A stretch of 64,000 nt of DNA from Timema cristinae (Eukaryota > Arthropoda > Insecta > Phasmatodea > Timematidae). The position numbers and the translations under genes are program-made. Within the stretch, counting starts at the first letter, position 1, and every line of letters starts with the position of its first letter. The stretch covers positions 50,975,801 to 51,039,800 of the forward strand of contig JBCFYV010009882.1 of NCBI GenBank assembly GCA_039000515.1, written 5' to 3'. The notes under the pieces were generated by a model. The model was not told the origin of the DNA. It made no database searches and worked only from the letters and a program-made list of their open reading frames with translations. Positions 9,640-64,000 of this stretch are shown here, piece by piece.

Positions 9640-10075
9640 AAGTAGTACTGTGAAAAAACTCATAAAATTCACTGGTTTGATACGAGTGAAATTTAGTGTC
9701 AAGTTGGGATGAAAAGGGACGCGAGAAAAGGCGAGTGTTATTGCCATTTTTTGTCAAAACTTTTTTTTTTGTCAAAATAAATCAAATATTGATCCAGTAC
9801 AACCATATAATTTAATTTTCTTCACATGTTGATATCAACAGTACCTAAGTATCTGTCATGGGCATGGTGGCATTATCTAACAAATTTTTAAATGAAGAGA
9901 AAAAGCTATCATTAAATTCCAGAACACTCTTGGCAGATATTCAAGAAATTTTGAGTTCATCATGTGAATAAAATTAAATTCTATGTTCGTAACAGAGCAA
10001 AATTTTATTCATTTTGTAAAAAAAAAAAGTTTTGCCATAAAAACTGCCAAAACACTGGCTTTTCGTTGAGTCCCC
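9640..10075. repeat. Dispersed repeat, copy 1 (partner near 55990-56290)
   Basis: Blocks TTTAATTTTCTTCACATG, GGTGGCATTAT and a T/A-rich TGCCATTTTTTGTCAAAA segment recur in the same order and spacing at 55990-56290. The region contains no credible gene. It is an unclassified interspersed repeat with approximate ends. Confidence 0.5.
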
Positions 10076-14042: not shown

Positions 14043-14562
14043 ATTTTTACTTTAAATAATGTACTATAGCCAAACAATAGTGATAAATAACAAAATTAAT
14101 ATTTTAAAATCATTAGATTTAACTATCAGTTAATATTTATATAATAACTAATTAGATTGAACTAGTGTTTAATTTGTTTTGGTAGTCACTGGCCCTATTC
14201 AGATCTGACTCTTATGATTACATTACTTTCAATAAATCCCCCTACTGATAACGGTCAGAAGTTTGAACTATGCCCTCTTGAAAAGGCAAAACACATATGT
14301 TTGAAATGTATCTAAGAAGTCTGTCTACCAGTTATGAGATATTGGTGTTGTGTTGCAATTGGGGCATACATAAATGGTTTTTGCTAATTTAATTGTAACT
14401 GTTGTTGAACATAAAACTAAGGTTATAAACAACTTATATTAAAATCAATCAAATAAGGTATGGGAAAACAATTTGTTTTAAATGACTTGTGAAAAACATC
14501 TTTAATTCAACTTACTTTGTAACCTACTCATCACAGGTGATTTTTGTGCAGTGTCTATTAAA

Positions 14563-14857
14563 TTATTATTATTATTATTAGCACCGCGTCTTACTACCCA
14601 TTCGGGTTATACGCACTTACGCTAATGTGTAATGGTAGGGTGATTGTGATATGAAATGAAGGACCTACAGTTTAGAGTGGAATCCGAACCACGGTGGAGG
14701 CCTGGCATTCCTCACATTCACAAGTTGTGATTAATACACATCTTGTCAGAGGTGAAGGAAGGGTTTGGTAATCAGATAAATCTGTGCCGGGACCAAGGAT
14801 TGAACCCCGGCAGCCAGCATAGAAGTCCGACACCTTAGCCCTAGACCACCAGGTCAC
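14563..14857 (-). mobile_element. tRNA-derived SINE, family A, with target duplication
   Basis: This is a full-length minus-strand copy. The head carries tRNA-type promoter boxes (compare GGTCTAGGG and GGTTCAATCC), and the 3' end is GGTAGTAAGACGCGGTGCTA followed by a (TAA)n tail. The 14-bp duplication CAGTGTCTATTAAA flanks it at 14549-14562 and 14858-14871, so it was inserted by target-primed reverse transcription. Confidence 0.9.
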
Positions 14858-14901
14858 CAGTGTCTATTAAAATCGGGTCTAATCTAGTAATAGGAGTATT
14901 A

Positions 14902-14907
14902 GCAGTA

Positions 14908-14939
<32 letters not shown>

Positions 14940-15189
14940 CATAATAACAACAACAACACAATTATTGGCATATGACAAATTTCAAATATATTGCCATAAA
15001 TTGTATGAACTTTGTATAACTTGTTAAGTTTCTAATATAAAATCTATCGCAGTAATAATAATAATAATAATAATAATCATAATAACAACAACAACAACAC
15101 AATTATTGGCATATGACAAATTTCAAATATATTGCCATAAATTGTATAAACTTTGTATAACTTGTTAAGTTTCTAATATAAAATCTATC
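14902..15189. repeat. Tandem duplication, two units of about 144 bp
   Basis: The units 14902-15048 and 15049-15189 are nearly identical. Each starts with GCAGTA and a (TAA)n run, passes ATTATTGGCATATGACAAAT and ends AAAATCTATC. They differ mainly in the length of the (TAA)n and (CAA)n runs. No coding content. The duplication lies just beyond a SINE. Confidence 0.92.
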
Positions 15190-15448
15190 TCAAAAAGGTA
15201 AGATCTGGCAAATGCGTACTCCTTAAGACGTATACTGCAATTTAAGAATGGAACGATCAATACTTTTTTAAATTTTGAATGAAAATAGGGAAAATCTAGA
15301 TTCCAGAATAATTTCAGAGTCAATACAGAGCAATGTGGGCTAAAGCGATACAAACAAGTGTGCACCTGGTTGTCACACACCTCTCTGTGTTGCAATGGCT
15401 TAGCTAGTATGTCAATTGTCTGGCCTAGTTCTACCATATTTGTTTCAG

Positions 15449-16120: not shown

Positions 16121-16243
16121 TGAAAAATGACACCTAGACATGATAATTGGGTACGAAACGATTCCTGGATAGCTCAGTGGTTAGAGCATTGGCGTACTAA
16201 GCCAAAGGTTTGGGTTTGATTCCCGTGTCTAAGTGTCATTTTT
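16121..16243 (+). mobile_element. tRNA-like SINE unit flanked by an 18-bp inverted repeat (family D)
   Basis: A tRNA-like block has a D arm GCTC...GAGC, an anticodon stem TTGGC/GCCAA with a 7-nt loop GTACTAA, and a T loop in GGGTTTGATTCCC. A box TAGCTCAGTGG (16170-16180) and B box are intact, but the acceptor stem does not pair. AAAAATGACACCTAGACA (16126-side, left) and its near-perfect inverted copy at 16226-16243 flank the unit. A related minus-strand copy is at 53045-53137. It is therefore treated as a SINE rather than a tRNA gene. Confidence 0.65.
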
Positions 16244-25976: not shown

Positions 25977-26277
25977 TTGGTAACCTGGCGGTCTAGGGGT
26001 AAGGTGTTAGACTTCTGTGCTGGGGATCTGGGGTTCAATCCTTAGTCCTGACACAGATTTATCTGATTGCCAAACCCTCCTATCACCTCTGACAGGACGT
26101 GTATTAATCACAACTTGTGAATGTGTAGAATGCCAGGCCTCTACCGTGGTTTGGATCCCGCATTAAACTGTAGGCCCTCCATTTCATATCACAATCACCC
26201 TGCCATTACACATAAGTGTAAGTGCGTACAACCCGGACGGGTAGTAATACTCAGTAGTAGTAGTAGTAGTAATAATA
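25977..26277 (+). mobile_element. tRNA-derived SINE, family A
   Basis: The head TTGGTAACCTGGCGGTCTAG carries the A box and GGGGTTCAATCC the B box. The body runs through ATTTATCTGATTGCCAAACC, and the tail GGACGGGTAGTAATACTCAG is followed by (TAG)n and (TAA)n. It is diverged compared with the copies at 36670 and 59633. No clean target duplication was found. Confidence 0.85.
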
Positions 26278-27806
26278 AAATTTGTCAGATGTTCATAAGT
26301 CGTCATGATCAATAATCATTCCAGGTTCCAACAAAATAGAAAAATGCAAGGTTGAGAATTGTAGTTTCATTGGTTTCACATGAAATGACACTTTCACTAT
26401 ATCAATAATAAGAATTTCCAATACAGAATTTAGTACAGATACCTGATATGAAAAAAATAGATTTAATTGGGGTTTATTAAGATTATTGCTAAAAGCTTTA
26501 GGTGGAGATGGCAAAGGAATGCAGTAGATCCTGAATTTAAAAAAAAGAGAAAAAATAGCAAAGGTTTATAAAAATGTTATCCTAGGCTGACAAATTAGAG
26601 AGTCATTAATTAAAAAACATTTGAAAATCCCCTGAAACTCATTACATATAATTTGTGAAATTAATTCAATTTCATGATAACAATCAACTTGCTAAGCCAT
26701 AAGAATGTGAACTATATACACTCTGTTTACTATGAAAGGTAGCATTGATTGGTAACAATTTTACATTGACTGATTACTACACCAAAGTGGATCCAAGCAC
26801 ATTAAGCTTGCTACCTATCAGGGTAAACTGAGGTTACAACTAGGCAGAATGCTGGAATCATAGGTTACGGAGCATAATATGTCACTCCAACAAACACTAC
26901 TTCAATAAAATACAAATGGATTTATTTCCCAAAAATCCTGGCAAAAATATAGTCACCATGAAGTTATACCACAGCAAATGGACATGATGGTTGACTAATG
27001 TTAATTTTTAGTAAGGAGACTTATAATTTCATTTTAATAAAAAATCAATTGCTGCACAATATAGAATGTTGCTTTGCAAAATAGTATACTATACATCCAG
27101 TAGTAAAGTGTAATTACTTAGGGGTTAGTCATATAAAGGTGTTATGACAAAAATTATGTGAGGTATATTATACATGTAATAAAATGAGAATATAAATAAT
27201 GTGCAATATATTATAATATAAATATCATAGTGTAAGCAAATTAAAATATAACATTCATATTGATTATGCTTTAATTTTCTTACATTACATTTGTATAGTA
27301 ATATCCTGTACAGTATTTATATTATCATTTCCTAGCATTTATAATATAGGTGTATATAATATTTGTTGCAACACCTTTTTATCGCTTTTGTCCCTTGATG
27401 TAAAGTATATTATTTTTAAAAGCAACAGACTAATTATACTGTGTCACAATTGATATGTTCTTATACTGATAATAAAACAAAGTCTGTTGGGATATTTAGA
27501 AAGACCCTTCTTTTCCAAAATAAGATCAGGTAGAAAACAGCTCTACATGTTTTTTTTGTTAGTCAGGACAATACCTATTTTCACTTTAGGCTAACATTAA
27601 CTTTTAGTGCAGGCATCTATCAGAAATTTGGGTGGAACAAATGAGTGTATGTCATTTTTAAAATCAGCATGCTCACTTTAATATGAGATGGAATAAAAGA
27701 GCTGAAGAGTGGGAAACTTCAAAAATTAAAAAAATAACACTAAAACATGTAGGTCCTTTTTAATTATAATTTGTTTAAAATAATTGTGTATTTGTTATGA
27801 ATTATC

Positions 27807-34548: not shown

Positions 34549-36669
34549 AATGTATTTATATACAACCCAATGTTTAAGCGAGATAAAAACTGGAGGGGTT
34601 AAAAATGTAGTTCTATCAGTGTATTCAGCGAGAGTGGTTTTTTCCCTCTATAAAAAGACCTATTTAAAGCTTATGTCCAAAATTAACAAGTATTTAAGTA
34701 TTCTTTTTTATTAAATTCCCCCTTTTTTCCTGACACAAACAATTCCGTTTTCCCGGCTCTCCCAGTTTTCTAGATGTTTGGGAGCCCTTCCTTAGTACGT
34801 TGTAATCTGAAGATGATATTGATACCGATAATTGAGCTCAAAAAGTAAAAATAAAGTTTTAACACTGCATATATTAGGTTATATTCAAATGTGTTTGTAT
34901 TTCCAAACATATTTATTTAACCTAGAATGTTATCTACATTTTAAATATACTTATTTTTTACAAATAGCTAGGGCTCGGTCAATGCCGATAACCGATCTGA
35001 TTTATCAGCCAAGGATAATGGTTTTTTTTTATCATGCCGATATTTTATGCAGATAATTCAAAATTTATAGATATATTTTAAATTCTCAAGTCATGAAAAT
35101 ATAATTCAGAGTTCAAACAAAAATATTTAAATACAGTCTAATGCATGTAAACACACATTTTTTAATTTGGTGTTAGATATTTTATTTTATAATAGGTAGC
35201 AAAACCAACATTTTAAACCAGCGGTTCTCAAACTGTGGTATGCAGAGCTTATCAAGGTGGTACGCAAACAGACAGAACAATACTAACATTTCCCCCCCAC
35301 TTTGAGGAACTTATTTGTGTATAATAACACTAATGGCTCGTCTACAACCAAAACACCCACTGGTTGAACTCACAACTATGCAATCACAAGCATGCTTGCT
35401 TACGCTTTCCCTTAATACAAAATAGCCTGTATACAATGAAAAGTCATAAGACATAATCTCAACCAATAGGAATTAAGACAAATTAACTAATGAATAAAAT
35501 AATAAATATACCAGACAGTCAATCATAGGTGGCACTGCATTAAAATCATGATTCTAAATAATAAACTAACCTTGCACAATAGCTGTTTTTTGTCATAAAA
35601 ATATATTCTTTAACAATTGATTCAATTAAGATATCGTCGAAATAAGTTGTACAAACAAGCCATGCAATGCCAAAAAGAATTGATTAATCCAAAGCAAAGA
35701 GCATACTAAAAACATGGGTCAGAGATGACTGCAAAAATCAAATTCATATTAAAGTTTTCAATTAATAAGATATAATATATAGATATTAAATAAATACTTT
35801 TATGGTTAAATATATATTATTTTAATTTAGATTAAAAAATGTTATATTTATTATTATCCTCAATCGGGGTAACATTGACCCCTGGGATCAATTCTGCTTA
35901 AAACTTTGTTTTTCTCCTTCACGAGTGGTTGCAACTAAAAACTTTCATTATGTAAATTGTAGCTTGATATTTATACTTTATGAAACACATATGAGATTAT
36001 AAAACAATTCAATCTATGTGTAAAGTTCTTATAACTTAGGGAAGAAAAATCTGAAAAAAAACTTTATGCATTGACCCCCTGAAAAAAAAAAGCGCTTATA
36101 AAAATGTTTTGTTCATTTTTTGATTCTATCTATATATGTAAGTACCTATTTGTGAAGTTAAATTTTAAAATCTGGCATCCCCAAGTCATTATTACTGAAT
36201 CTTTGTTAGAAGTCAAGGGATTACATTCAACAGATACAATGAAAACTACCTTTGTTCCTAAAGAAACTGATGTCTTACTTGCAAATTTTGAATAGGCGTA
36301 ACAAAGCTTCTCACCTCCATATTGGAAGAACATGGTAGAAGTTTTAAATACAAGTTTCCAGGAAAAGTCCAAGTGAAGGAGATGGAGAACTCTTTTTAAA
36401 AAAATGAAATTGAACATTTTGATTATTGTCTTTTGTCACTATATATATAAAAATAGTGATATATATACTAAGACATCAACAGAGGTCAAAATTAGCCCAA
36501 ACACCAGGTAACATTGACCTCCTCTTTTATTTTCCCCCCAGATAGTCTACAAAATTAAAATACAATTTAATAAACTGGAAGGAAAGGTATTATTAATATT
36601 TACTTATAACTACTGGCTGAATGCAAGACAACATAACTACAGTCAATCAGTCGGGGTAAAAAGCAAGTC

Positions 36670-36955
36670 GGTGACCTGGTGGTCTAGTGGTAAGGTGTCA
36701 GACTTCTATGCTGGCGGCCGGGTTCAATCCTCGGTCCCGGCAAAGATTTATCTGATTACCAAACCCTTCCTTCACCTCTGACAAGACATCTTGTGAATGT
36801 GGGGAATGCCAGGCCTCCACCGTGGTTCGGATTCCACGTTAAACTGTAGGTCCTTCATTTCATCTCACAATCACCCTACCATTACACATTAGCGTAAGTG
36901 CGTATAACCCAAACAGGTAGTAAGACGCGGTGCTAATAATAATAATAATAATAAT
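36670..36955 (+). mobile_element. tRNA-derived SINE, family A, with 12-bp target duplication
   Basis: This is the best-preserved family A copy. A box TGGTCTAGTGG is at 36679-36689 and B box GGTTCAATCC at 36721-36730. The tail AACAGGTAGTAAGACGCGGT is followed by GCTA and (AAT)n. AAAAAGCAAGTC flanks it at 36658-36669 and 36956-36967. It sits in the 5' part of the middle hAT and so arrived after that element. Confidence 0.95.
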
Positions 36956-38266
36956 AAAAAGCAAGTCCGCTGTGGTATCGCAAGGATAGGGTTGGCTCCG
37001 GTGTTTTACATATACTCTGATAATCTGATTTTAAAATATTGTGTTACTTTTTCATTTGATCCAAGTTTGTTTAAATTGAAGTGCTTATGTTGCCACAGGT
37101 TTCTTGAGAGGGACTTTTGTTCTTACATAGATACGTATTTGAGTACTTTGCTTGAATTAACTTGGTTTATTTGGCGTAAAATACAAATCAACATGGATAA
37201 GTGGCAAGAGAGCAGACAAAAAAAAATCTGCTGAAAATCTTGTACCATCAAGCTCTACTTCAGAATCAGAATGTAGGGTGAGTCAAGATGAGAAAATTAC
37301 TTCTAAAATACAAAAAGTTGTAAGAAAAGATGATCCTGAGTACATTAATATTGGAGTTAAGGTCACAGATGTAAACAATGAGCCAAGGCCTCAAAGTGTA
37401 ATCTGCTATGAAATTCTTTCAAACCAAAGCATGAAACCATCATTATCGAAACGTCACCTTAGTACGAAACATTCAATGTTAGAATACAAGCCTAAGGATT
37501 ATTTCATTCGAAAATAGACTGAGAGGAAAGGTATAAAGAAAGTTATGTCGTCTTTTACCAGCAGTACTCAAAAAGCAGTCACAGCATCTTTCTTGGTGAT
37601 CTTAAGAATACCAAAGTGTAGAATAGCTCATATATTCAGTTAAGAGCTGTTGTTAGTTGATGAAAAAGATATTAGGACTTGTTTGTTGGGTGAACCATCA
37701 GCTAAACAGCTAGCTACAATATCACTGTAAAATGATACCGTGTGCCGCAGGATTGAAAGTATGGCATCAAACGTTAAAGAAAACTTAATAGCTCACGTCA
37801 AAAATAGTGATTTTTGTGCCAAACAACTCGACGAGCGCACAGATGTAACAAACAATGCTCAACTTATGGTTTAGGTGTGGTATGTATTTCAAACTACAAT
37901 TAAAAAGGATTATTTATTTTGTGAGGCGCCAGCAACATTAACTACCACCGATGAAATATTCACGAAGCTGAATGCCTTCTTTGCAGAAAATGGAATGCAC
38001 TGGAAGCAGTGTGTTGACTTCTGTTCTGATGGCGCTCGAGCTACAACAGGAAAATATGGAAGTGTTGCCATCAAGTAAAATCGGTTGTAGAAAATTGCAC
38101 TTTGTCATTGCAGCATCCACAGAAAAGCTTTAGTAATAAAGCGTACGCCTGAACAATTTAAACTTGTTCTCCAGGAGGCCATCAAGGTGGTCAATTTTAT
38201 TAAATCTTGGGCTCTCTAAGCTCTCGTTTATTTTTGAAACTGTGTTATGAAATGGGCAGTGATCAC

Positions 38267-48888: not shown

Positions 48889-51719
48889 AGGTGGGTGTCC
48901 CTGTTATTGCCATGCTAAGGTTTGAGAATTTTTCCACCCGCCATTTAAAAAAAAAATCATAACCAACTTTATTTTTAATCGTTCTCTGGCGAATGGACTT
49001 TCATAAAAAAAATTGCATTCCCCATAAAAATAGTTTTACTGGTCCAAAAAAATGAAATTCCAAAAGCCAACCTAGTGGCCATATCAGGAACATGTGTACA
49101 TGATATGGCCACCCCTTTTTTTCATGTTCTACAAATCGTGATTTTCTTTCAGTTTCATAGTGCAGTTCTGCTAAAATTAAATAATTTTTATGTAAAATGA
49201 ATAAACATGATACTAAATAATTATTTTTAGTATTCAAAAGTGGATTCAAAATAGCATTTTCCATGAAAAATGAAGTTGTTTAAACAATTGACATTTACGC
49301 TTTATTTAAAAAACAAAAATGTAAAATAATTCAAGAGAAGAATATAAGATAAAAATGAGATTATTTAAACAAATTACTGGTCGCAATTGGGACAAATAAA
49401 AATGTCTTTGTCAGCAGCAGTGAGGCCAACACACTCTTCATGGTAGAAATTCCCACAGACTACGCAGAGTCGCATGTCCTTGACTTCGTCCTCCTCACAA
49501 ACACTGCAATACCAACTTTCAGCGTCTGTGGTTTTCTGAGTCTTTTTCTTTCTGGGTTGCTGCTGTTTGGTCTTTGGCTTGTTGCTCAACGGCTGTTTCG
49601 TGGTTTGTTTCTTTTTAGGTTTAGACGCCTGAGATTCTTTTGGCTGGAAAAGATTTCTTTTCAGCTCAATCCCACGCGAATTCATGGTTGGTCTTATGAC
49701 TCTCGTTGTTTTTCTTTTCCTTTTTGGCGTTGGTAGAAATTCATCTAATCTGGATGATTCAATGCCTGGCGGAGAATCTTCTCCATCCATACATAGAGCT
49801 ACAACGTCAATAGGATAATCTATATCAGACGACGATGACGAATCAAGATCGACAAGTCGAGGACGCTTAGCACCTTTAGTTTGTTGTGGTGAAGTGTGAG
49901 TAACTGATTCCAGAAGAGTATTGGATTGGTCCAATGAGCTTCAAGAAGGAATCGGATCACTGCTAGTGCTCGGCTGATTGTTGTCAGGTAAGCCTGAGCT
50001 TTGTTGGTTGTTCAATTCAGGAAGCGGGAGTTCAGTCACAGTACTAGGGGCAAACGCCTCTTCTGGGATCACATTCGGGTTGAACGGGTACATACCTGTG
50101 CCTCTGAAGCCACTAGTCATATTGGATTGTGTCATTGATCTGCCCCATGCTGGGGTGAACACATCAGGAAAGTTCAAACGAGTGATATCATTCTGGTCCC
50201 GGTGTGAGTCAAAAAATCTCAGAACCTCCTGGTCACAAAACGTTTCAAAGCTCCTGAAGCAACTTTTGTCCAACGGTTTCAATTCATGAGTTGTGTTGGA
50301 TGGCAAGCAATAGAGGGCTATGTCATGCTTTTCAGCCTCTTCACAAATTTTGTAATCGAGGTGTGCCTTGGCTCCGTCAAAAATCAGAAGGCATGGTCCA
50401 TTGGTTTTAAATCTGGCAAAATGTTGCAGAAAATCAACAAAAGGTTGAGTTGTCATGCTCCCTTTAGGAGTAATTTGAGTCCATGATCCAGCAGGCAAAC
50501 CTTTCTCCCAGGCTTTATTTTTTCTCACTCCTGAGTATAAAATCATTGGAGGGATGATTGAACCCACAGCGTTCCCACAAGCCACAACGGTAACACTTTC
50601 CCCGCGTTCTTTGCCCACAATACGAACTCGTGAAGCCCCCTTTTGGGCTAAAACTCTTGGATCCTTATGGAGGTGGAGCCGGCATCCTTTTTCATCCATA
50701 TTGAAAACTCTTTCTGGGAATACAAAGAAATTGTATTTGGTGAAGATTTCTTTTAGTTTCGCAAAGTGATCAGCAACTATGAACTTGTTTAATTTCTGAG
50801 ACCGGGCTGGGTTCATTATTTGAGCTTTCCGTCGTGCAACGTTAGGTTTCCTCTTCAAAAATCTGTCAAACCACTTATGACCAGCAGTCTCTTTAAAACG
50901 GTTTGGGATGTTGTTTTCTTGACAGAAGCGAAAAACGTTGAGTTTAAGGATGTTAGGAGTCAATGGATAACCTACAGAGGACAAACGAAAAATTCTCTGG
51001 CATAGCTGTTTTTCTTGTTCAGGTGTCAAGGTGGGTTTTCCACCCAACTTTGACTTCTTTAAAGGGCCATCTTTCTCCAAATAACGGCGTAAAGTACGTC
51101 TAGGTACACAAAATTTGTTACTTGCCCCTTGAACTGAAAACTTCCCACTATTCACACCACTCACTGCCTTGGACATGTCTTCTTCAGTCCATAATCCCCT
51201 ATTCTTAACGTTATCAGACATTATTTTATATCTGAAACAAAAAACAAAGGTTTTTATTGAGTAATTTTGTCAGCAGAAAAATAAATTTTAAATCAACTTG
51301 ATATGGCCATGGTGCACCTGATATGGTCATCTGGGTGGCCATATCAGGAGCAGGTCAGCGTTCACGAAAATTGTTTGATTATGAAAAACTCGTAAAATAT
51401 ACACCATCAAAGAACACATCAATCGAAAGAGCATTTAAAACTGAATAGAGTACGATGGTTTTCATAAAAAAAGTTTTTGAAACACATGCATAAAACTAAG
51501 GAGACTTACCAAAGAAAAACAAGAAGAGGTCCCACGAAAAACATAAAACAGGCAACTGACGACATATTGCTCAACCTGGCTGGACGGGAAATGATCACGT
51601 GACACACTAGGAGGCTCCCTCACTGGATGCTGATGCCATCTAGCGGAATTTTTGGTTAGCTAATTCACAATAGGGGGATGGCCATATCAGGAACATGGCC
51701 ATAACACGGGCACCCACCT
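48889..51719 (-). mobile_element. Pogo/Tigger-type DNA transposon, near-intact, TA target site
   Basis: Terminal inverted repeats of about 28 bp (24 of 28 matching) begin AGGTGGGTG on both sides, flanked by TA at 48887-48888 and 51720-51721, as in Tc1/mariner-pogo insertions. It is 2831 bp long. Six copies of GGCCATATCAGG or its inverse (49077, 49101, 51299, 51317, 51337, 51680) sit near the ends and are likely transposase sites. It carries one long transposase gene. Confidence 0.95.
49374..51221 (-). CDS. Pogo-type transposase with C-terminal PHD finger, one in-frame TGA
   Basis: The frame is 615 codons long with a single TGA at 49941-49943 after codon 426. Residues 1-55 form a psq-type helix-turn-helix (WTEEDMSKAVSGVNSGKFSV), about 60-135 a CENP-B-type helix-turn-helix (GHKWFDRFLKRKP), and about 165-340 the DDE domain: NMDEKG (D176), LLIFDGAKAH (D282) and LKPLDKS (D318), so all three catalytic acids remain with DD35D spacing. 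Beyond the TGA come a Ser/Asp-rich acidic stretch, Lys-rich nuclear-localisation-like segments, and a C4HC3 PHD finger (CSVC, CVVC, HEEC, CPNC). It would cut and paste the element. The stop may be a recent mutation or a readthrough site. Confidence 0.94.
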
Positions 51720-54402: not shown

Positions 54403-54524
54403 TAAATGGGAATAGAAATAAATATAAAAAAAATTACACTGAAAACTCTTTCAGTATAAGATTTAAATGGGAATAAAAATAAATACAAAACAATTACACT
54501 GAAAACTCTTTCAGTATAAGATTA
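54403..54524. repeat. Tandem duplication, two units of 61 bp
   Basis: The units 54403-54463 and 54464-54524 both begin TAAATGGGAATA and contain AATTACACTGAAAACTCTTT; they differ at a few bases. Non-coding. The flanks 54191-54402 and 54525-55564 show nothing else. Confidence 0.93.
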
Positions 54525-58915: not shown

Positions 58916-59901
58916 AGCCCACCCCCCACTTCCAATGAAATTTTTGTAAATGTTGAAAGTAATAAATTTTGTTCCACTAAACATTGGTTTTCACATAAGT
59001 CTCGGCAGATGACAGCACTTTTTAAACTTTGGTTTATTCAACATATTCTTGCACATATCTGCCTGTTGTTCTTCTGTAGATATGTAGTAAACTTTGATCA
59101 CTCCAACAACCTTGTCCTGAACAAATTATATTGTATGTCGACAAATTTGAGCCTATTGTGGTGCTAAGGATTCTTGGCTATCTGTATTGCGGATGGGTTG
59201 TCCTCATAGAGTTTTACAACATAATTTTTGCTAAGAATATCTGCAAGAAAACTTTGAATCTAACAAGCATTACTTACTGCTAAATTTAAAGCATCATACT
59301 CAAGACTACCACCATTGATTGTTTCTTTCAGCACCAAGAAACACAAGACTCAAAAATGTTGTAGGTGTAACTCGTTGTAGACTTGTGATTTTCCAGGTCT
59401 CTTCCCCAGTCTCTATCTACAAAATCTTATAAATTCAGTATCGGTTTGATTTCAGTCATAGATAAGTTTCAAGTTGATAGTTCCTTTAATAAAGTGTAGC
59501 ACTCATTTTAACAATTAGCAATAATTCTTGGCTAGCACAGCCTTGAAAACAACAGAGAATATCTTACTGATGTGCACAAGTCTGGTCTTGACCCAAACAT
59601 TCTGCACATCAGACATCCAATCAATTTGCAACTTGGTGACCTGGCGGTCTAGGGGTAAGGTGCCAGACATCTATGCTGGGGGTCCGGGTTCAATCCTTGG
59701 TCCCGGCACGGATTTATCTGATTGCCAAACTCTTCCTTCACCTCTGTCAAGACTTGTATTAATCACTACTTGTGAATGTGGGGAGTGCCAGGCCTCCACC
59801 GTGGTTTGGATCTCACGTTGGGTCTTCCATTTCATCTCACAATCACCCTAGCACATTAGCATAAGTGCGTACAATCCGAACGGGTAGTAAGACACGGTGC
59901 T

Positions 59902-59952
<51 letters not shown>

Positions 59953-61017
59953 TTGCAACAGCTTGCTTCCAACTTTTGACTCTTGGGAATGTCTTTTTTC
60001 AAGTTGTTAACTTTAACTGCAGTGTCCAAAGGTGTACATAGTACCTGCATTCTTACAAACTGAAAGTTTTCAAGGCCGTTGTAATATATTTTTTCTGGTA
60101 AATTTCAAGAATTCCTGATTTCATATTTGGAGATATATGGATACCAAGATAGTACTCCTGAAATCTCTCGAAATTACTGCAGAAGAGACTCTTTAAGGAT
60201 ACATTTTCTTCAGAGTTTGAACCAACTATCAAAATATCATTGACAAAAATGAGGAAATAGTTTTTTCCTTCATTTATATATAAATTATAATATAATCAAT
60301 ATAATCAATATAATATAATCAATAGTCATTTTGAGATCTTTTAAACCCATTTTTATCACCAATGAATTGAGTACTTAAATGAACACACCTTTCTTTATTT
60401 CAACATAAAGCAATGCACTTCTCACATCCATTTGGTAAATAGGCAACCCAAGATGATTAGCGACTGCAAGCACTACTCTTAGTATTAGCAGTTTGGCTAT
60501 TGGTGTGTATATCTCTGAGAGATCCAATTGGTCACTTTGTTGGAAGCCCTTTACCACCATTCATGCCTTAAATACTTCTGGTTATCTAGTCTCACTACAC
60601 TTTCTAGTAAAGCCCCATCTGTAGTCAATGACCTATGCATGGTTCAGGATGATCCACTTCCATCTAGACATTATTTACCCTCAGAGCTTGTAATTATTGA
60701 TGATCAATTGCAATTTTCCACTGTTCCTGTTCAGAATTTTTCACTACCCTCATCAAAGGTTTGCAGCTTTTCAAGATTAGCTAGGAAACTAATAATAATA
60801 CTAATAATCTTCAACTTTGCAGGTTGTTTCACTTGAGTTAAATTTCTGAGAGAGTACCTATTTCCTCCATCATCTGTTTCATATTCAACCTGTTCTTGAA
60901 GAGGCCATGATTCTGGTGTTGCTGGTTGTTGACATGTGTTGTCTATCATTGCTTCTGGCTGTTGACCTGTGTTGTCTATCAGTGCTGCTGGTTGCTGTTC
61001 CTGTGGTTGTGGGTTTT
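58916..61017 (-). pseudogene. Ty1/copia element A, 3' half, decayed
   Basis: Read downwards from 61017: a low-complexity linker with a repeated ALIDNTGQQPE / AMIDNTCQQPAT unit, NRYSLRNLTQVKQPAKL, then copia RT: VVKGFQQSDQLDLSEIYTPI, VANHLGLPIYQMDVRSALL, FVNDILIVGSNSEENV (YVDD box changed to FVND) and YYLGIHISPN. The SINE at 59633-59949 follows, then IGCLMCRMFGSRPDLCTSVR, DRDWGRDLENHKSTTSY (RNase H) and ISTEEQQADMCKNMLNKPKF. A purine tract lies at 58917-58933 and the LTR starts TGTTTGGGG at 58916. Gag, protease and integrase are missing. Many stops. Confidence 0.88.
59633..59949 (+). mobile_element. tRNA-derived SINE, family A, inserted in copia A
   Basis: Starts TTGGTGACCTGGCGGTCTAG with B box GGGTTCAATCC and ends in GGTAGTAAGACACGGTGCTA plus a long (AAT)n run. 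AATTTGCAAC flanks it at 59623-59632 and 59950-59959. Removing the SINE and one duplication restores the copia RT frame through the CKLIGCLM region, confirming the insertion point. Confidence 0.95.
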
Positions 61018-61972
61018 CTACTGGTTACTGCCTCTAGTGATAATGTTGAAATTAAGGCGAAAAAAGAAAAAGAGCTGGACAAACTTTGGAAAGCCGATCG
61101 CAAGTGTAAGTCACAGATTATACAACGAATCTCGGACAGCCACTTGGATTGTGTGAAGGATAAGAACACCGCCTATGATATATGGCAAGTGCTTTGTAAT
61201 ACTTACGCTTATAAAGGTATTGCTAATCAGCTTTTACTACGCAAAACCTTGTTGATGATGAAATTTGATCCCTCTTTAGAGACCCTTGAATTGCATTTTA
61301 TTAGGTTTGATCATACTATTCGGGGATTGAAATCATCGGGAGCTAACTTCGAAGAATTAGATGTTGTCTGCCATCTTCTCTTGACTATGCCATCTGAATA
61401 TTAAGTAATTGTCACTACCATAGAGACATTAACTGCTGATAATCTCAACCTGGCATTCATAAAAACGCGCCTACTTGATGAGCAGAGCAAACGCCAAGCA
61501 GAAGGTATCGATGGATGCAGCCAATCATTCTCTAGCGTTACTGATTGGAAGGCTGGAAAATTGAAATCTTCGCAGCTGGAATGTTGTCCCAATTGTAAAC
61601 AAAGCATTTCAAAGCAAGTTACTGGTAATAAGTGTTTTTTCTGTCATAAAGCTGTTCATTTTCGTTCGGACTCCAAAATTGAAAGGCAAGAAGAAGCAGA
61701 ATAATTCAATACGTAAACCAAATGTAGCTGAAGCTAGTGATGATTAGTTTAGTTTGACTGTGTTAACGTCAGTGGCTGGTTATGATGGATCTGTGTGGTT
61801 GCTTGACTCTGGCGCCACTGAACATATGATCAGTAGTAAAAATATTAGTTTGGTCTCAAATAAGAGACGCCTATCAAGGTCTATCAAAATAAAATTGCTA
61901 AATCAGGATCGATGTTGTGTGCTGAAGAGATCAGAGATATACATGTGTCTGTGACTCACAAAGGTAATAAAA

Positions 61973-62168
61973 ACGCTGGTGAAGTGCGAGGTCTCGTGCT
62001 CCTACACAGATGTTCAAGTTCCTCACCAAGAGTCTCTTCTTAGACAGAAATTTCCTCTGGTTCTCCTCCTGCAATTCCTCAGTAAAAGCTTCATTTGGAG
62101 TCAAACTGATGACCTCAATAGCTTGAGATGGTGTTGAACCAGCAACACCACAGGTTATGAACAAATGT
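61973..62168 (-). repeat. 196-bp inverted copy of copia B sequence 63268-63463
   Basis: The reverse complement of 61973-62168 equals 63268-63463 with no difference that I can see. It lies in the segment between protease and integrase and breaks that frame. A 32-bp direct repeat (61943-61974 and 62165-62196) brackets it and overlaps the insert by 2 bp (AC) on the left and 4 bp (ATGT) on the right. Confidence 0.97.
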
Positions 62169-63475
62169 GTCTGTGACTCACAAAGGTAATAAAAACTTTA
62201 TCAAAATTTCCAACGTACTTATTGTTCCTGGATTACAATTTAATTTACTCTGTTAGTAAAATGGACGCTAATGGGCTTAAAGTTGTGTTTGAAAAGGGGA
62301 ACGCTACTATTTTGAAAGGCAATATTTTTGTGGCTGCTGCCACTCGATCTGGTAAAGTGTATACAATGTCTCTTTCACCTCGTGAAAAAGCATGTGGTGG
62401 TGTTGCTAGTTCCATTGTAGCATCATCTGATTTGTGGCACAAGAGGCTTGGTCACATTGGCAAAACCGGTTTAGTTCACTTAAGTAAAATTGTAGATGGA
62501 ATCAAGGTTGATCAAGGATTGATCTCCGATTTATGTGACTCTTGCATACAGGCTAAACAAATGCGTCTTCCTCACACAAAGCCATGCATTAGAGTTAAGC
62601 GCCCTTTGGAGATCATACACAGTGATCTTGTAGGGCCCATTAAGCCCGTATCATATGATCAAAAGAATATATGCTTACCCTGATTGATGACTACAGTCAT
62701 TTACACTCCAAAGGCAAAGTCTGAAGTGTTTACATACTCAAACAATTTGAATCTATGGCAACAGCTCACTTTAAGCTAAAGATAAGTCGCTTTAGGTCAG
62801 ATAATAGTGGTGAATTTGTGTTGCAGGAGATGCTAGATTAGTTAAAAAAGAAAGGTATCCAGTCAGAGTTTACGATCAGGCATACCAGTCAGCAGAACGG
62901 TGTCGCAGAAAGAATGGGACGTAGCATTATGGAGAAAACACGTTGTTTACTCCTTCATTCTTCTCTTGATAAGTGACTCTGGACGGAGGCTGTTATGACT
63001 GCAGTCTACCTTATAAACAGATCGCCTACTAAAAGCTCTTGAAAACAAGGTTCCATCAGAACTGTGATATGGTGTAAAGCCTGATATGCTACACAGCCAA
63101 AAACCCTCAGTTTTAACATATCTTCGATTACCCAATCAAGTTCTTAAAAGTAAACTTGACAGCCGCTCAAAAAAGTGCTACTTTGTTGGTTACTGGCCGA
63201 ATGGGTACAGGCTGTGGTGTCCACAGGAACGAAAAATCATGCGTGGACATGATATAATTTTTGATGAACATTTGTTCATAACCTGTGGTGTTGCTGGTTC
63301 AACACCATCTCAAGCTATTGAGGTCATCAGTTTGACTCCAAATGAAGCTTTTACTGAGGAATTGCAGGAGGAGAACCAGAGGAAATTTCTGTCTAAGAAG
63401 AGACTCTTGGTGAGGAACTTGAACATCTGTGTAGGAGCACGAGACCTCGCACTTCACCAGCGTACGTAAATGACT

Positions 63476-64000
63476 GTCACATTGGCTCTTGGTGCTGAGT
63501 CATTTATTGACAACTTGTCAGAAACCTTCGATGACATCCATAGTAGAGATGATGCCCAGCAATGGATGGCTGCAGTTGAGGAAGAGATTTACTCAATGAA
63601 GAAAAATGAGACCTGGACCCTTACTGAGCTGCCATCCGGTAAACGAGCTATCAACTGCAAGTGGGTCTTCAAGATGAAGCAGGATGAAAATGGACAGCTT
63701 GACAGGTACAAGGCAAGGTTGGTGGTGAAGGGCTGTGCACAGAAGAAAGGGTTTGACTACAATGAATTGTACTCACCCGTAGCCCATTTAACCTCTGTCA
63801 GAACCCTGCTTGCAATTATAAACAAAGAAGATTTAATTGCCTTCCAGTTAGACATGAAAAATGCATTCCTACATAAAGACCTTTCTGAAGAGGTGTATAT
63901 GAAGCAGCCACCTGGCTTCGTAACTGACAGCAACCTTGTTTGTAAGTTACACAAGACCCTCTATGAATTGAAGCAGGTACCACGAGAGTGGAATGCTAAA
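63476..64000 (+). CDS. Copia B reverse transcriptase segment (partial)
   Basis: This open segment encodes the first part of a copia RT domain: DDAQQWMAAVEEEIYSMKKN, INCKWVFKMKQDENGQLDRY, YSPVAHLTSVRTLLAIINKE, then FQLDMKNAFLHKDLSEEVYM with the first catalytic Asp in QLDMKNAF, and VCKLHKTLYELKQVPREWN at the edge. The YVDD box lies beyond the window. It is better preserved than copia A, so copia B is younger or under less decay. An upstream stop near 63467 separates it from the preceding linker. Confidence 0.85.

What the first reader, a model, noticed from the sequence alone, without database searches (positions are those of the whole stretch)
61943..62196. Self-derived 196-bp inverted insert with a 32-bp duplication in copia B
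An exact inverted copy of 63268-63463 sits 1.1 kb upstream inside the same element. The 32 bp just before the insert are repeated just after it, and the junctions show 2-bp (AC) and 4-bp (ATGT) microhomology. This is what is expected if reverse transcriptase switched to the opposite strand at the AC, copied 196 nt, and switched back at the ATGT, 32 nt behind its departure point. Such a readable double switch is uncommon and the identity means it is recent.
Basis: partly seen in the sequence, partly recalled or inferred. Interest (0 to 1): 0.75.

Follow-up and report, generated by a model that had tools for sequence, protein, structure and literature searches.

The report
Template-switch scar in decayed copia element
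A broken copia-type jumping gene carries a fresh copying scar, a backwards copy of a nearby piece of itself flanked by a short repeat, most likely left by the host's own DNA repair or replication rather than by the element's reverse transcriptase, and ordinary of its kind.

Summary
The host element is a copia retrotransposon; the insert lies in its Pol_BBD domain, and rejoining the flanks gives one continuous, though weak, domain match. One event with two strand switches is a good reading.

The reverse-transcriptase part is probably wrong. The element is already broken (by my count six in-frame stops and five frame switches in about 3 kb), yet the arms and both 32-bp copies show no difference. 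If the defects arose after integration and the switch happened at the last reverse transcription, zero changes has P 0.0001-0.0017 with that count, 0.012-0.054 with a strict count of five. Host DNA replication or break repair is the likelier author; published '4 before 1' template switches share the geometry.

Unresolved: whether other copies carry the insert (genome search failed in all eleven tries), whether the defects were inherited, and whether reads support the junctions. New member of a known kind; low interest.

The parts
61943..61974 (+). first copy of the 32-bp duplication (recipient, left of insert)
   Evidence: identical to 62165-62196
61973..62168 (-). 196-nt inverted templated insert (includes the AC and ATGT microhomology overlaps)
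   Evidence: exact reverse complement of 63268-63463
62165..62196 (+). second copy of the 32-bp duplication (right of insert)
63268..63463 (+). donor segment at its native place: end of the integrase SH3-like domain and the linker before reverse transcriptase
   Evidence: open frame 63068-63469 runs across the left donor border; SH3_retrovirus match to residue 70 of it; homologue P0124 aligns 63041-63376, across 63268
61748..62253 (+). Pol_BBD (copia beta-barrel) domain interrupted by the insert; it also holds a frame switch left of the insert
   Evidence: profile 1-46 before (frame 1) and 45-71 after (frame 0); joined flanks in frame 0 match profile 32-71; all below Pfam's gathering score
63264..63279 (.). 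7-bp-stem, 2-nt-loop hairpin sequence at the donor's return border
61040..64000 (+). decayed copia element B (gag, BBD, gag-pre-integrase, integrase pieces, SH3, RT), running off the window; 5' end apparently missing (inferred); the start is approximate
   Evidence: domain and homologue matches in changing frames; in-frame stops at 61402, 61745, 62839, 62974, 63065; one more at 63467 read

Best explanation
A host DNA polymerase, copying the already integrated and already decayed copia element, switched to the opposite strand, copied 196 nt from about 1.1 kb away, and returned 32 nt behind where it had left. SHOWN: donor, recipient, identities, overlaps. INFERRED: that this happened in chromosomal DNA long after integration. 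Two routes fit and cannot be told apart here: (a) a template switch at a stalled or broken fork (FoSTeS/MMBIR, '4 before 1' type); read right to left it can be a fold-back onto the strand's own earlier product, read left to right it needs the other strand; (b) a break with ends staggered by 32 nt, both filled in, joined through a filler copied from the nearby donor by microhomology priming (Pol-theta-type or SD-MMEJ end joining).
For: Geometry and identity are exact. Six in-frame stops (five, one more read) and five frame switches between consecutive parts stand against 0 differences in 2x196 plus 2x26 sites. P(0 | same age) is 0.0001-0.0017 with these 11 defects, 0.002-0.017 with 7 and 0.012-0.054 with a strict 5. 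The upper 95% bound on change since the event is 0.7% per site. The perfect match to this broken copy suggests that the donor was this copy, its sister or its homologue (inference). Three of four pre-event breakpoints lie in palindromes or hairpins that cover 12.5% of 61000-64000 (nominal P 0.007, looked for after the fact). Published '4 before 1' events have this form (PMC7954356, section 8 part 2).
Against: The age argument assumes that most defects arose after integration; they could be inherited from a defective parent. The coding pieces were chosen by hand. Four of the six stops, and the places of most frame switches, rest on my reading of the frames: homologues cross only the stops at 62974 and 63065 and one frame switch at 63030-63035. 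With the strictest count P is only 0.012-0.054. No second copy and no empty site in another individual could be examined. The 196-nt copy is longer than the great-ape maximum of 128. [quoted passage not shown]
Confidence: 0.75

Rival explanations
1. One reading: the element's reverse transcriptase made the double switch while copying its RNA, and the rearranged cDNA then integrated here. In minus-strand synthesis (right to left) the donor would already exist as minus-strand DNA, so polarity allows it.
For: Both arms lie inside one element and the junctions have microhomology; abnormal reverse-transcriptase template switching has been proposed to build complex LTR elements (PMC1950507, passages).
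Against: The arms are perfect while the element is broken in many places, so the integrated copy would need a parent already carrying most defects. PMC1950507 concerns fusions of two elements; 'inverted' does not occur in its main text.
Confidence: 0.13
2. Artefact: a chimera from whole-genome amplification, or an assembly or polishing error.
For: Amplification chimeras are mostly inverted (406 of 475; 337 of the 406 within 10 kb) and in 76.8% of cases primed at complementary stretches of 2 bp or more (PMC1855051, passages).
Against: Inference: such chimeras are single joins, while here two joins return the path to within 32 nt of its start, and an assembly consensus would normally outvote one molecule. 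How the window was sequenced is not known to me.
Confidence: 0.08
3. A break in the element was patched by a captured fragment of copia cDNA from another copy.
For: Recalled: cDNA capture at breaks is known in yeast.
Against: A fragment from another copy would be expected to differ somewhere from this decayed copy, but 196 of 196 positions match. How far other copies differ is not known.
Confidence: 0.04

Closest known systems
Short-range template switches, '4 before 1' class (great apes, PMC7954356; passages and section 8 part 2 read)
   Same: Inverted templated insert, return point behind departure point, looks like one large insertion; event order here 4-1-3-2.
   Different: Longer copied stretch (196 nt against a reported median of 12 and maximum of 128), donor about 1.1 kb away, inside a retrotransposon.
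DUP-NML-INV/DUP rearrangements attributed to MMBIR (PMC6902434; passages read)
   Same: Two duplicated segments separated by a normal stretch, one of them inverted; microhomology at some joins.
   Different: Far larger: 3084-7863 kb between duplications in three individuals, two of them of this class; here 32 nt and 196 nt with about 1.1 kb between.
Templated and inverted insertions at breaks, limited by RPA and Rad27 (PMC11724301; abstract and section 19 read)
   Same: Copied inserts; small microhomologies between complex insertions and break ends (median 2 bp, range 0-4).
   Different: Induced breaks in yeast mutants; the common complex class there joins two inverted fragments from one distant locus.
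Break-repair insertions in rice with tandem duplications (Vaughn & Bennetzen 2014, seen only as described in PMC7407515, passages)
   Same: Duplication at the break together with a copied filler, explained by offset nicks.
   Different: Non-tandem fillers there are described as coming from within 200 bp of the break; here about 1.1 kb.
Small inverted triplications (PMC13334657; abstract and passages read)
   Same: Direct copies flanking an inverted piece of similar size (160 bp median).
   Different: There the inverted piece belongs to the duplicated region; here it comes from elsewhere.

Membership tests
Template-switch event, '4 before 1' (four-point model) | a reverse-complement copy (2 to 3) between points 1 and 4 | tested here: met
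   196 of 196
Template-switch event, '4 before 1' (four-point model) | point 4 precedes point 1, giving a flanking duplication | tested here: met
   61943 precedes 61974; 32-bp repeat
Template-switch event, '4 before 1' (four-point model) | ancestral state known from a relative | tested here: inconclusive
   No relative with an empty site was found; only the domain test supports it (joined flanks match Pol_BBD 32-71, E 8.4e-4, 20.1 bits against a gathering score of 27)
Reverse-transcriptase strand-transfer product | event no younger than the copy's last reverse transcription | tested here: inconclusive
   Arms unchanged while the element has 5-11 counted defects, P 0.0001-0.054; fails unless the defects were inherited
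Reverse-transcriptase strand-transfer product | rearranged copy integrated with LTRs and target-site duplication | not testable with these tools
   No LTR recognised at the 5' side; the element runs off the window at 64000
Copia (Ty1) LTR retrotransposon | gag, gag-pre-integrase, integrase before reverse transcriptase | tested here: met
   Retrotran_gag_2, gag_pre-integrs, SH3_retrovirus and RVT_2 in order; of 10 further pieces, two match Pol_BBD and one rve_3, all below gathering scores
Copia (Ty1) LTR retrotransposon | two LTRs, primer binding site, target-site duplication | not testable with these tools
   the 3' end is outside the window, so LTRs could not be found by comparison
Small inverted triplication | the inverted piece is a copy of the flanking duplicated region | tested here: not met
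   insert copies 63268-63463, not the 32-bp flank

The most novel reading that the evidence does not exclude
RNA of a heavily decayed copia element was copied in trans, and reverse transcriptase switched to the opposite strand and back in one pass, leaving a precisely readable double strand switch in an integrated LTR element.
Probability: 0.12. Interest if true: 0.4.

Novelty: new member of a known kind. Interest (0 to 1): 0.2.

Why it matters
It is a clean, base-resolved scar of two strand switches in one event, with donor and recipient still side by side, and it shows how an age test can help to separate reverse-transcriptase errors from host repair in retrotransposons. It changes no view of how either works.

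Tried and rejected
Other copies with the insert: the genome search on the own genome was asked eleven times with the same query, as its message advised, and never answered. The left-junction 22-mer had no exact match in viral contigs or genome contigs; these hold viral and prokaryote sequence, so this says little. The RT piece found no confirmed relative in viral contigs (one pattern match, not confirmed), and 61060-63999 found nothing in plasmids. Within the window the last 4.6 kb has no second copy of element B at the DNA level.

Close relatives: protein searches gave only distant ones. For the RT piece 2729 of 2772 candidates passed and 120 were listed; the first row is 59% identical over 98% of the query, the highest identity listed is 65% over 69%. 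For the gag-pre-integrase piece 1 of 22 candidates passed, for the SH3 piece 3 of 4, one of these from Ignelater luminosus; the RT rows that name an organism name plants. The host was not identified. With no DNA-level sister copy, the age test uses stops and frame switches instead of substitutions.

Similar scars elsewhere in the window: none of the inverted type at 18 nt or more exact that passed the filter. Literature: nine searches; the one for internal inversions in proviruses by template switching gave no paper with all four terms. One search failed for a script error and was redone. One search failed for a bad search term and was replaced by reading section 8.

A simple inversion of the donor was rejected because the donor is still in place. 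Gene conversion keeping the arms alike cannot be excluded.

Full report
WHAT IS THERE. The segment 61973-62168 is the perfect reverse complement of 63268-63463 (196 of 196). The 32 nt that end at 61974 recur at 62165-62196 without a difference. The first two bases of the insert (AC) are also the last two of the left repeat, and its last four (ATGT) are the first four of the right repeat. The locus gained 222 nt. Among exact inverted repeats of 18 nt or more within 6 kb that pass a filter for simple sequence, the window holds only this one and three 18-nt palindromes.

DONOR AND RECIPIENT. The element is a copia retrotransposon on the plus strand: Retrotran_gag_2, gag_pre-integrs, SH3_retrovirus and RVT_2 follow in that order. 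The donor lies at its native place: the frame 63068-63469 is open across the left donor border, the SH3-like domain ends there, and the homologue P0124 aligns from 63041 to 63376, across it. The recipient lies inside the Pol_BBD domain: a frame-1 piece before the insert matches profile positions 1-46 and a frame-0 piece after it 45-71. Joining the flanks in frame 0 as a peptide gives one continuous match, 32-71, E 8.4e-4, better than the right half alone (0.0091), while the left half reading into the insert gives none at E up to 1. The frame-1 match (to 61942) and the frame-0 match (from about 61900) overlap on the left side, so the place of that frame switch is uncertain. The Pol_BBD scores (23.7, 20.1 and 16.7 bits) all lie below the gathering score of 27, so this is support, not proof, for the empty site.

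IS IT REVERSE TRANSCRIPTASE? The test is age. In 2673 nt of coding pieces, chosen by hand, I count five in-frame stops, plus one at 63467 between two pieces, read from the translation. Consecutive parts of the polyprotein lie in changing frames: gag in frame 0, the first part of BBD in 1, its end in 0, gag-pre-integrase in 1, integrase pieces in 0, SH3 and RT in 1: five switches. The 222-nt gain, a multiple of three, causes none. Two stops (62974, 63065) and one frame switch (between 63030 and 63035) are directly crossed by homologous proteins; the rest depend on domain frames or on my reading. The two 196-nt arms, and the 26 nt of each 32-bp copy outside the overlaps, hold no change. If decay and event had the same age, the probability of that is 0.0001-0.0017 with 11 defects, 0.002-0.017 with 7 and 0.012-0.054 with a strict 5, over indel-to-substitution ratios of 0.1-0.25, which are assumed; with stops alone (4-6) it is 0.00004-0.003. 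The 95% bound on change since the event is 0.7% per site. So the switch is probably much younger than the integration.

The escape for the reverse-transcriptase account is that the defects were inherited from a defective parent moved in trans. That is possible but needs a parent with most of these defects. The family's other copies, which would decide, could not be reached: the genome search failed in all eleven tries.

THE ELEMENT'S ENDS. No LTR of element B was recognised. The gag match begins at profile position 21 of 172, and upstream lies the reverse transcriptase of another copia on the opposite strand (60342-60674). That B is truncated at its 5' side is inferred; its 3' side is outside the window.

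MECHANISM. Points in four-point notation, left to right: departure 61974, donor 63463 down to 63268, return 61943; order 4-1-3-2. The great-ape survey describes '4 before 1' events that tend to look like one large insertion and need the new duplex to be opened for the return (PMC7954356, section 8 part 2). By that paper's logic, copying left to right needs the other strand, because the donor lies ahead; copying right to left allows a fold-back on the same strand (my inference). The other host route is a break with 32-nt staggered ends, filled in and bridged by a copied filler; a review describes rice insertions of this sort (PMC7407515, passages), and yeast work shows templated and inverted insertions at breaks (PMC11724301, abstract and section 19). 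[quoted passage not shown] The data here do not separate the two routes.

SEQUENCE AT THE BREAKPOINTS. Microhomology of 2 bp or more is expected at 17% of random inverted junctions and of 4 bp or more at 1.9%. Beyond the overlaps the junction flanks show no clear similarity. Three of the four pre-event breakpoints (at 61942/61943, 63268 and 63463, not 61974) fall in palindromes or hairpins that cover 12.5% of 61000-64000; nominal P 0.007. This was looked for after the fact and is only a hint that secondary structure helped.

VERDICT. Observation confirmed; the double switch is well supported; the agent is more likely host replication or repair than reverse transcriptase. A tidy example of a known kind.

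Noticed in passing
54432-54463 and 54492-54523: Another exact 32-bp direct repeat, 28 nt between copies; the spacer might be a second filler insertion.
   Followed up: no
60342-60674 (minus strand): Reverse-transcriptase remnant of another copia element facing element B; the two meet somewhere between there and about 61048, where B's 5' end seems to be missing.
   Followed up: partly
14557-14859, 25977-26281, 36663-36960, 59628-59928: Four copies of a roughly 300-bp repeat, the other three 80-85% alike to the one at 59.6 kb, with ATT/AAT-rich ends; looks like a tRNA-derived SINE (recalled, not tested).
   Followed up: no
49941-51269 (minus strand): Uninterrupted 442-aa frame with HTH_psq, HTH_Tnp_Tc5 and DDE_1 domains, a pogo-like transposase ('pogo-like' recalled); the neighbouring frame 49374-49940 reads like a PHD finger (recalled).
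   Followed up: partly
9747-10042: Long hairpin, arms of 143 nt 73% complementary with 10 nt between; perhaps a MITE.
   Followed up: no
14912-15192: Tandem duplication, two 140-nt copies 96% alike.
   Followed up: no
16163-16235: tRNA gene, called tRNA-Ser (anticodon ACT) by ARAGORN and matched by Rfam's tRNA family.
   Followed up: no
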